A stretch of 21,053 bases of DNA, taken from positions 1 through 21,053 of IMG/VR virus record IMGVR_UViG_3300048912_000331; one strand, given 5' to 3'. The notes beneath the pieces were generated by a model that was not told where the DNA came from, did not search any database, and saw only the letters and a list, made by a program, of their open reading frames with translations. The position numbers and the translations under genes were made by a program. This document shows positions 14,475-14,748 of the stretch, one piece after another. Source of the stretch: a virus. Each line of letters opens with the position of its first letter. Within the stretch, counting starts at the first letter, position 1.

Positions 14475-14493
14475 GCGATGGCCCCGCGCGGTC

Positions 14494-14515
14494 GTTTTGG
14501 AACCAATTGGGAACA
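14494..14515. repeat. 22-bp direct repeat, copy 1
   Basis: Copy 1 of a 22-bp direct repeat beginning GTTTTGGAAC and ending AATTGGGAACA, 21 of 22 bases identical to copy 2 at 14725-14746. It begins 20 bp after the integrase stop, is A/T-rich compared with its surroundings, and the centre of this copy is CCAATTGG. Two copies flanking the iteron block suggest protein-binding or recombination sites. Confidence 0.8.
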
Positions 14516-14535
14516 GATCGGCGGGGCCAACGGCA

Positions 14536-14560
14536 CGATCCGTTGCGGCACAACGGATCG
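14536..14560. repeat. Stem-loop downstream of integrase
   Basis: A perfect 10-bp stem, CGATCCGTTG (14536-14545) and CAACGGATCG (14551-14560), has a CGGCA loop. No T-run follows. It could terminate integrase transcription without a U-tail, as reported for some actinobacterial terminators, or it could be a DNA site. Confidence 0.6.
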
Positions 14561-14571
14561 CGGCCACGAAA

Positions 14572-14592
14572 TTTCGGTGTCTGACACCGAAA
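14572..14592. repeat. 21-bp perfect palindrome (10-bp arms, one-base centre)
   Basis: The left arm TTTCGGTGTC (14572-14581) and right arm GACACCGAAA (14583-14592) flank a single T. An overlapping CGAAATTTCG palindrome lies at 14567-14576. Read as 7-bp arms around a 7-bp centre (GTCTGAC), it has the geometry of a tyrosine-integrase core site; a repressor operator is the alternative. Confidence 0.65.
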
Positions 14593-14597
14593 CGCCG

Positions 14598-14723
14598 ATC
14601 CGCGCGGATGCGCGGGGATCGGCAGGGATGCGCGGGGATGCGCGTCTAACCCGCACGGGGACTGGAACACCACCACGCATCGGTGCGCATCCGTGCGGGA
14701 CGGTGCGCATCCCCGCGCATCCC
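14598..14723. repeat. Iteron cluster GGATGCGC with 19-bp inverted repeat
   Basis: The 8-mer GGATGCGC starts at 14606, 14626 and 14636 on the plus strand; its complement GCGCATCC starts at 14685, 14705 and 14715. Steps are 20 and 10 bp on both sides, about two and one helical turns. Copies two and three form one arm of a perfect 19-bp inverted repeat, GGGATGCGCGGGGATGCGC at 14625-14643, whose other arm is 14705-14723. Nested inside is an 8-bp pair at 14650-14657 and 14692-14699. ATCCGCGCGGAT (14598-14609) is another palindrome at the left edge. Phased, inverted protein sites of this kind are known from integrase arm sites and replication origins. Confidence 0.8.
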
Positions 14724-14724
14724 G

Positions 14725-14746
14725 GTTTTGGAACAAATTGGGAACA
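14725..14746. repeat. 22-bp direct repeat, copy 2, next to the tRNA
   Basis: Copy 2 of the repeat at 14494-14515, differing at one position (A for C, the eleventh base). It begins 1 bp after the iteron inverted repeat and ends 2 bp before the tRNA. Confidence 0.8.
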
Positions 14747-14748
14747 CG

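What the first reader, a model, noticed from the sequence alone, without database searches (positions are those of the whole stretch)
14475..14748. Highly structured non-coding locus between integrase and tRNA: phased inverted iterons
In 274 bp I see six copies of GGATGCGC (three forward at 14606, 14626, 14636; three reverse at 14685, 14705, 14715). They are spaced by 20 and 10 bp and form a perfect 19-bp inverted repeat, with a nested 8-bp pair. No ORF explains it. Helical phasing suggests a multiprotein complex; position next to int suggests attP arm sites, but an origin or partition site is also possible. I know of no described family with exactly this layout.
Basis: partly seen in the sequence, partly recalled or inferred. 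Interest (0 to 1): 0.78.

Follow-up and report, generated by a model that had tools for sequence, protein, structure and literature searches.

The report
Phage attachment site with excisionase arrays
The repeats beside the integrase gene look like the phage's own docking site for inserting into and leaving a bacterial chromosome, in which two sets of evenly spaced repeats are probably gripped by a small phage protein that tells the integrase to cut the phage back out; this is a well-known kind of switch in an unusually symmetrical layout.

Summary
In detail: six GGATGCGC copies at the stated coordinates, with a perfect 19-bp inverted repeat. The structure is richer than reported. The six copies are the best-conserved units of two facing arrays, each of five 10-bp units (14596-14645 on +, 14722-14673 on -). 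The arrays lie between two copies of a 22-bp direct repeat 231 bp apart (14494-14515, 14725-14746). Each copy holds two TTGGAAC/TGGGAAC units 11 bp apart. Two related phages have the same layout (paired 11-bp units, 234 bp apart, at the 3' end of int) around a half-tRNA.

Best reading: an attP site. The 22-bp repeats are the integrase arm sites. The GGATGCGC arrays are more likely sites for the HTH_17 excisionase-like protein encoded at 12462-12767, one protomer per helical turn. Three results support this: the strongest six-unit array outside attP lies just upstream of that gene; a related phage has a 10-bp array just upstream of its own HTH_17-int pair; the protein's nearest solved structures are BldC and Pukovnik Xis. 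Not settled: the crossover core, attB and the host. No binding was tested. Replication origin, partition site and terminator readings are weaker. Verdict: new variant of a known kind.

The parts
12341..12400 (+). Six-unit 10-bp array (CGATCCGCGA CGTTACGCGG GGATGCGCGA GGGTACGAAT ATGTGCGCGA ACATCCGCGG) upstream of the HTH_17 gene; predicted autoregulatory operator
   Evidence: Best 6-unit match outside attP to the PWM built from the attP units (24.9; next best outside attP 1.6; highest of 100 simulated 21-kb sequences 9.1); third strongest lag-10 stretch of the window
12462..12767 (+). HTH_17 (excisionase / BldC-like) DNA-binding protein, putative recombination directionality factor
   Evidence: Pfam HTH_17 1e-8; PHROG excisionase families; only PDB sequence matches are BldC 6ama and 6amk; Foldseek top hits BldC and Pukovnik Xis, each at E about 0.004
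13188..14474 (+). Tyrosine integrase
   Evidence: Pfam Phage_integrase 3.2e-7; PHROG integrase 3.9e-24
14494..14515 (+). P arm-type pair GTTTTGGAACCAATTGGGAACA (two units 11 bp apart)
   Evidence: 21/22 direct repeat with 14725; best two unit pairs of the window, 29.1 each against 13.9 for the next
14534..14562 (.). Palindrome CACGATCCGTT-gcggcac-AACGGATCGCG; candidate core or protein site
   Evidence: 11/12-bp arms around a 5-nt centre, or 10/11-bp arms around a 7-nt centre
14572..14592 (.). Palindrome TTTCGGTGTCTGACACCGAAA; candidate core or repeat element
   Evidence: near-copies repeated in one sampled genome, G585
14594..14623 (.). Palindrome GCCGATCCGCGC-ggatgc-GCGGGGATCGGC; best placed candidate core by geometry
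   Evidence: 11/12-bp arms, 6-nt centre; centre about 111 bp from the first P unit, against about 102 for the half-tRNA anticodon loop in L048
14596..14645 (+). Left array, five 10-bp units, contains GGATGCGC at 14606, 14626, 14636
14673..14722 (-). Right array, five 10-bp units facing the left one, contains GGATGCGC at 14715, 14705, 14685
14725..14746 (+). P' arm-type pair GTTTTGGAACAAATTGGGAACA
   Evidence: 231 bp from the P pair, against 234 in L047 and L048
14749..14830 (+). tRNA-Leu(CAA), complete, just outside the P' pair
   Evidence: ARAGORN; Rfam 57.5 bits; up to 89% identical to tRNA-Leu(CAA) genes of the sampled class, T-stem kept paired by changes on both sides

Best explanation
This is the phage attachment site (attP) of a temperate phage that uses a tyrosine integrase. 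The integrase (13188-14474) bridges two arm-type pairs (14494-14515 and 14725-14746) and a core that lies between them. The two facing arrays of 10-bp units (14596-14645 and 14722-14673) are most likely cooperative binding sites for the HTH_17 protein encoded at 12462-12767. That protein acts as an excisionase: one protomer per helical turn coats and bends the DNA so that the integrase excises rather than integrates the phage. A third array at 12341-12400 lets the same protein control its own promoter. Shown by computation: the repeats, their periodicity, the arm-pair layout shared with two related phages, the operator-like array, and the fold similarity. Inferred: which protein binds which element, the bending, the excision role and the autoregulation. 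Unknown: the crossover core, attB and the host.
For: attP: two phages with related portal genes (L047, L048) carry at the 3' end of int a pair of 11-bp units repeated 234 bp away, with a 5' half-tRNA between them; the window has the same layout at 231 bp. The half-tRNA of L048 matches tRNA genes of the sampled class at 90-92% over about 40 nt and stops just past the anticodon stem. Cluster J mycobacteriophages have this anatomy (int, P1P2, core about 100 bp downstream, P3P4, pairs of 10-bp direct repeats), with integration shown by a vector test (PMC3706429). RDF arrays: a PWM from the ten attP units finds its best outside array at 12341, upstream of the HTH_17 gene, and a motif-free lag-10 test gives the same three places. 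In about 600 kb of held loci the other strong 10-bp arrays are one directly upstream of the HTH_17-int pair of a relative (L049; L017 and L040 are the same contig) and one in L056, which had been fetched by the motif itself. The HTH_17 protein resembles BldC in sequence and BldC and Pukovnik Xis in predicted fold. BldC binds head to tail on direct repeats (PMC5859096). RdfS, of the same HTH_17 group, binds attP and its own promoter at one protomer per 10 bp (PMC11963761). Phage 186 Apl binds five direct repeats at attP and seven at a promoter region, 10-11 bp apart (PMC7498355).
Against: No attB was found: weak scattered hits in 345 genomes of the class Acidimicrobiia and no consistent site in 396 genomes of its phylum. 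The host is not established. No homologue of this integrase close enough to compare sites was found. In L049 the array is upstream of the HTH gene only, not in its attP, and L047 and L048 have no such arrays. Fold similarity is modest (best Foldseek E 0.004; model built from four sequences). Facing arrays are not the usual one-sided RDF layout, and inverted repeats also make a strong RNA hairpin.
Confidence: 0.7

Rival explanations
1. attP as above, but the GGATGCGC units are themselves the integrase arm-type sites.
For: They lie next to int in facing order around a central segment, and many attP sites have repeated arm sites.
Against: The 22-bp direct repeat matches the arm-pair layout of L047, L048 and the Cluster J phages much better. 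An integrase would not be expected to need a further array upstream of the HTH gene. Five units at one-turn spacing is typical of RDF sites.
Confidence: 0.08
2. The crossover core is inside the tRNA-Leu gene (14749-14830). Both arm pairs would then lie on one side of the core and the phage would insert into the host's tRNA-Leu.
For: tRNA genes are common targets; Cluster J phages use tRNA-Leu; the relatives carry half-tRNAs between the arms; the tRNA starts 2 bp after the P' pair.
Against: The tRNA is complete, with its stems kept paired by changes on both sides and a match to the phage's codon use, so it looks like a working phage tRNA. No arm pair lies downstream of it. In L047 and L048 the half-tRNA lies between the arm pairs.
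Confidence: 0.1
3. The arrays are operators of a BldC-like transcription regulator that controls int and its own gene without any role in excision.
For: The nearest PDB sequence relative is BldC, a transcription factor; an array lies upstream of the HTH gene; in L049 the array is only upstream of the HTH gene.
Against: The attP arrays lie downstream of int, between the arm pairs, where a promoter for int is not expected, and no sigma-70-like promoter was seen there. HTH_17 proteins beside int are commonly excisionases.
Confidence: 0.1
4. The inverted repeats act as RNA: a cluster of strong hairpins that ends int transcription or protects and processes the tRNA transcript.
For: 14590-14735 folds at -99.9 kcal/mol, z -8.9, and 14528-14600 at -33 kcal/mol, z -4.3.
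Against: No T run and no terminator call; no Rfam family. Hairpins do not explain the 10-bp phasing of degenerate units or the matching array at 12341.
Confidence: 0.05
5. Replication origin or partition site with iterons.
For: Iterons and palindromes are typical of origins (general knowledge; the repeats themselves are).
Against: A better origin candidate exists: five ACCCCGGCCA repeats 22-25 bp apart inside the replication initiator gene (initiator). No partition gene was recognised among the proteins scanned.
Confidence: 0.03

Closest known systems
Cluster J mycobacteriophage attP (Omega, BAKA; PMC3706429)
   Same: int followed by P1P2, a core about 100 bp from int, then P3P4; each arm pair is a pair of 10-bp direct repeats; HTH gene near int proposed as RDF
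   Different: Arm sequence differs; their core is 44 bp of tRNA-Leu and no tRNA fragment lies between the arms here; no facing 10-bp arrays are described in the passages read
Phage 186 Apl sites (PMC7498355)
   Same: Five direct repeats 10-11 bp apart at attP and a second array (seven) at a promoter region, bound by one small HTH protein
   Different: One array at attP, not two facing ones; unrelated sequence; [quoted passage not shown]
RdfS of ICEMlSymR7A (PMC11963761)
   Same: HTH_17-group protein, one protomer per 10 bp, binds attP and its own promoter
   Different: No consensus motif could be found for RdfS, whereas the units here are clear
BldC of Streptomyces (PMC5859096; PDB 6ama, 6amk)
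   Same: Closest solved relative of the HTH protein; head-to-tail binding to direct repeats
   Different: 9-bp AT-rich repeat (AATTXXXXC), developmental regulator of a bacterium, no integrase
attP of related phages L047 and L048 (IMG/VR contigs)
   Same: Same portal family; HTH_17 gene, int, arm pairs of 11-bp units 234 bp apart
   Different: A 5' half-tRNA lies between the arms; different arm sequence; no GGATGCGC arrays; integrases too diverged to match by BLAST

Membership tests
Tyrosine-integrase attP | Tyrosine integrase gene next to the site | tested here: met
   Pfam and PHROG matches, int ends 20 bp before the P pair
Tyrosine-integrase attP | Arm-type sites on both sides of the core | tested here: inconclusive
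   Sequence layout fits: two pairs of 11-bp-spaced units, 231 bp apart, as in L047 and L048; binding not tested and the core between them not located
Tyrosine-integrase attP | Core shared with a bacterial attB | tested here: inconclusive
   No consistent attB in 345 Acidimicrobiia genomes or 396 genomes of the phylum; host unknown
Tyrosine-integrase attP | Integration and excision at this site | not testable with these tools
   Needs a lysogen or a vector test
RDF (excisionase) binding sites | Direct repeats spaced about one helical turn | tested here: met
   Two five-unit arrays at 10 bp
RDF (excisionase) binding sites | Phage-encoded small wHTH protein of an excisionase family | tested here: met
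   HTH_17 protein at 12462-12767
RDF (excisionase) binding sites | The protein binds the array and promotes excision | not testable with these tools
   Needs EMSA or footprint and an excision assay
Iteron replication origin | Iterons next to or inside an initiator gene | tested here: not met
   The initiator is at 17709-18188 with its own repeats
Intrinsic terminator | GC-rich hairpin followed by a T run | tested here: not met
   Strong hairpins but no T run

The most novel reading that the evidence does not exclude
The crossover core lies between or within the two facing arrays, so that attL and attR would each keep one five-site excisionase array. The excisionase would then build a symmetrical filament pair on both partner sites before excision, rather than bending one arm only.
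Probability: 0.25. Interest if true: 0.5.

Novelty: new variant of a known kind. Interest (0 to 1): 0.36.

Why it matters
If right, it gives an unusually clear example of a BldC/Xis-type protein with a readable 10-bp code, used both at attP and at its own promoter. RdfS, of the same group, has no recognisable consensus, so this system could help to separate sequence reading from spreading along DNA. It also shows that arm-pair geometry (231-234 bp) is kept in phages whose integrases are too diverged to match by BLAST, which would help to find attP sites in uncultured phages. The practical reach is modest.

Tried and rejected
Integrase relatives in viral, genome, phage and plasmid collections: none close enough (remote matches only). 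Exact arm motif in viral contigs: four hits, all single and outside any matching integrase context, taken as chance. Iteron spacing pattern in viral contigs: one hit, a simple 10-bp tandem repeat in an AT-rich contig, unrelated. attB search with the 209 bp between the arms in 345 genomes: weak scattered hits. Two palindromes as attB patterns with up to 3 mismatches in 396 genomes: the six hits to the first that were looked at lie in unrelated contexts without tRNA genes; the second occurs as a repeated element in one genome. A third arm pair after the tRNA: suspected by eye at about 14896-14914, rejected by PWM (unit scores 2.1 and 3.8). ERF protein as bait for closer relatives covering the site: only remote ones. 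The 274 bp against phages and plasmids by sensitive blastn: no match. Rfam: only the tRNA.

Full report
What is there. Six copies of one 8-mer in 274 bp were reached in 15 of 20,000 first-order shuffles of the same stretch, and an inverted repeat of at least 19 bp in 10 of 3000. In the whole window no other 8-mer is clustered six times within 250 bp.

The true period is 10 bp. Read in steps of ten, the left side is CGATCCGCGC GGATGCGCGG GGATCGGCAG GGATGCGCGG GGATGCGCGT (14596-14645, +). The right side, on the minus strand from 14722 to 14673, is GGATGCGCGG GGATGCGCAC CGTCCCGCAC GGATGCGCAC CGATGCGTGG. A test that uses no motif, counting identity at a lag of 10 bp over 40 positions, ranks these two stretches first and second in the window (31 and 28 of 40) and ranks 12338 third with 23.

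A second repeat encloses them. GTTTTGGAACCAATTGGGAACA at 14494-14515 recurs with one change at 14725-14746, 231 bp on. Each copy holds two TTGGAAC/TGGGAAC units 11 bp apart; these are the two best such pairs of the window by a wide margin (29.1 each against 13.9), although the PWM was built from these four units, so the margin partly reflects that. In 40 shuffles no 22-mer direct repeat exceeded 17 of 22.

Comparison with related phages. The portal gene finds 33 IMG/VR loci. Of 18 records searched, five hold a recognisable integrase, and two of these have a tRNA-like match just downstream of it. In L048 and L047 the 3' end of int holds a pair of 11-bp units that recurs 234 bp away, and between them lies the 5' half of a tRNA up to the anticodon stem. 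In L048 that half matches tRNA genes of the sampled class at 90-92% over about 40 nt. In a third relative, L050, the stretch after int holds what looks to me like the 3' end of a tmRNA gene between two partial repeats 63 bp apart; the tmRNA reading rests on my own knowledge. So an attachment site at the 3' side of int appears to be the rule in the relatives where it can be read. The same anatomy, with integration shown by a vector test, is described for Cluster J mycobacteriophages (PMC3706429).

Who binds the arrays. The HTH_17 protein (12462-12767) matches excisionase families. Its only PDB sequence matches are BldC (6ama, 6amk). A four-sequence AlphaFold2 model (mean pLDDT 74) has BldC and mycobacteriophage Pukovnik Xis as best Foldseek matches, at E about 0.004 each, with RdfS lower. 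The E-values are modest, as expected for so small a domain. A PWM from the ten attP units finds its best six-unit 10-bp array outside attP at 12341-12400, 62 bp upstream of the HTH_17 gene: score 24.9, against 1.6 for the next place outside attP and 9.1 for the best of 100 simulated windows. In a relative, L049 (contig shared by L017 and L040), a seven-fold CTGTCCCCGT array with 10-bp period lies directly upstream of the HTH_17 gene that precedes int. Over about 600 kb of held loci the strong 10-bp arrays are this one, the two at attP, and L056, which had been fetched by the motif itself. In L049 the array does not recur in its attP.

What is known of such proteins fits. BldC binds head to tail on direct repeats (PMC5859096). 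RdfS binds attP and its own promoter at one protomer per 10 bp, without a consensus (PMC11963761). Apl of phage 186 binds five direct repeats at attP and seven at a promoter region, 10-11 bp apart, cooperatively and with bending (PMC7498355). Hence the assignment: 22-bp repeats to integrase, 10-bp arrays to the HTH_17 protein. This is inference; no binding was tested.

What stays open. The core was not found. Three palindromes lie between the arms: 14534-14562, 14572-14592 and 14594-14623. By distance from the P pair the third lies closest to the place of the half-tRNA loop in L048. No consistent attB was found in the genomes searched, and the host is unknown; an Acidimicrobiia MAG holds a 34% relative of the portal, and a short Methylomirabilota MAG contig a 45% one. 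The tRNA-Leu(CAA) is complete and up to 89% identical to tRNA-Leu(CAA) of sampled Acidimicrobiia, with its T-stem kept paired by changes on both sides. TTG makes up 203 of 309 leucine codons in 15 phage genes, so a working phage tRNA is plausible. It could still be the target of integration, which I keep as a rival.

Other readings. The inverted repeats fold strongly as RNA (z -8.9), but there is no T run and hairpins do not explain the array at 12341. An origin is less likely because the initiator gene at 17709-18188 has its own ACCCCGGCCA repeats. The 274 bp match nothing in the phage or plasmid collections.

Verdict. It is most likely an attP with excisionase arrays in a facing layout that I did not find described; the literature search was limited to open papers. 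New variant of a known kind, of moderate interest.

Noticed in passing
17955-18056: Five ACCCCGGCCA repeats 22-25 bp apart inside the replication initiator gene (17709-18188), a candidate replication origin.
   Followed up: partly
14749-14830 and the phage genes: The phage carries a tRNA-Leu(CAA) and uses TTG for 203 of 309 leucine codons in 15 genes despite a high-GC genome.
   Followed up: partly
whole window; 18365-19168: GCGC is depleted (80 found, about 187 expected from trinucleotides), yet occurs in every GGATGCGC unit; the phage also encodes a Mom-like DNA modification protein.
   Followed up: no
L049 1327-1405: Relative with a seven-fold CTGTCCCCGT array (10-bp period) directly upstream of its HTH_17-int pair; a TAGCGGATTCGAA repeat recurs at 2851, 3033 and 3218 downstream of int.
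   Followed up: partly
L050 2839-2922: Stretch after int that resembles the 3' end of a tmRNA gene, lying between two partial repeats 63 bp apart; possible attP targeting ssrA.
   Followed up: no
14572-14592: Palindrome TTTCGGTGTCTGACACCGAAA has five near-copies in one sampled genome (G585), like a dispersed repeat.
   Followed up: partly
about 12266-12283: Near-palindrome GGTGGTGTGTACACCACC in the stretch upstream of the HTH_17 gene, a possible repressor operator.
   Followed up: no
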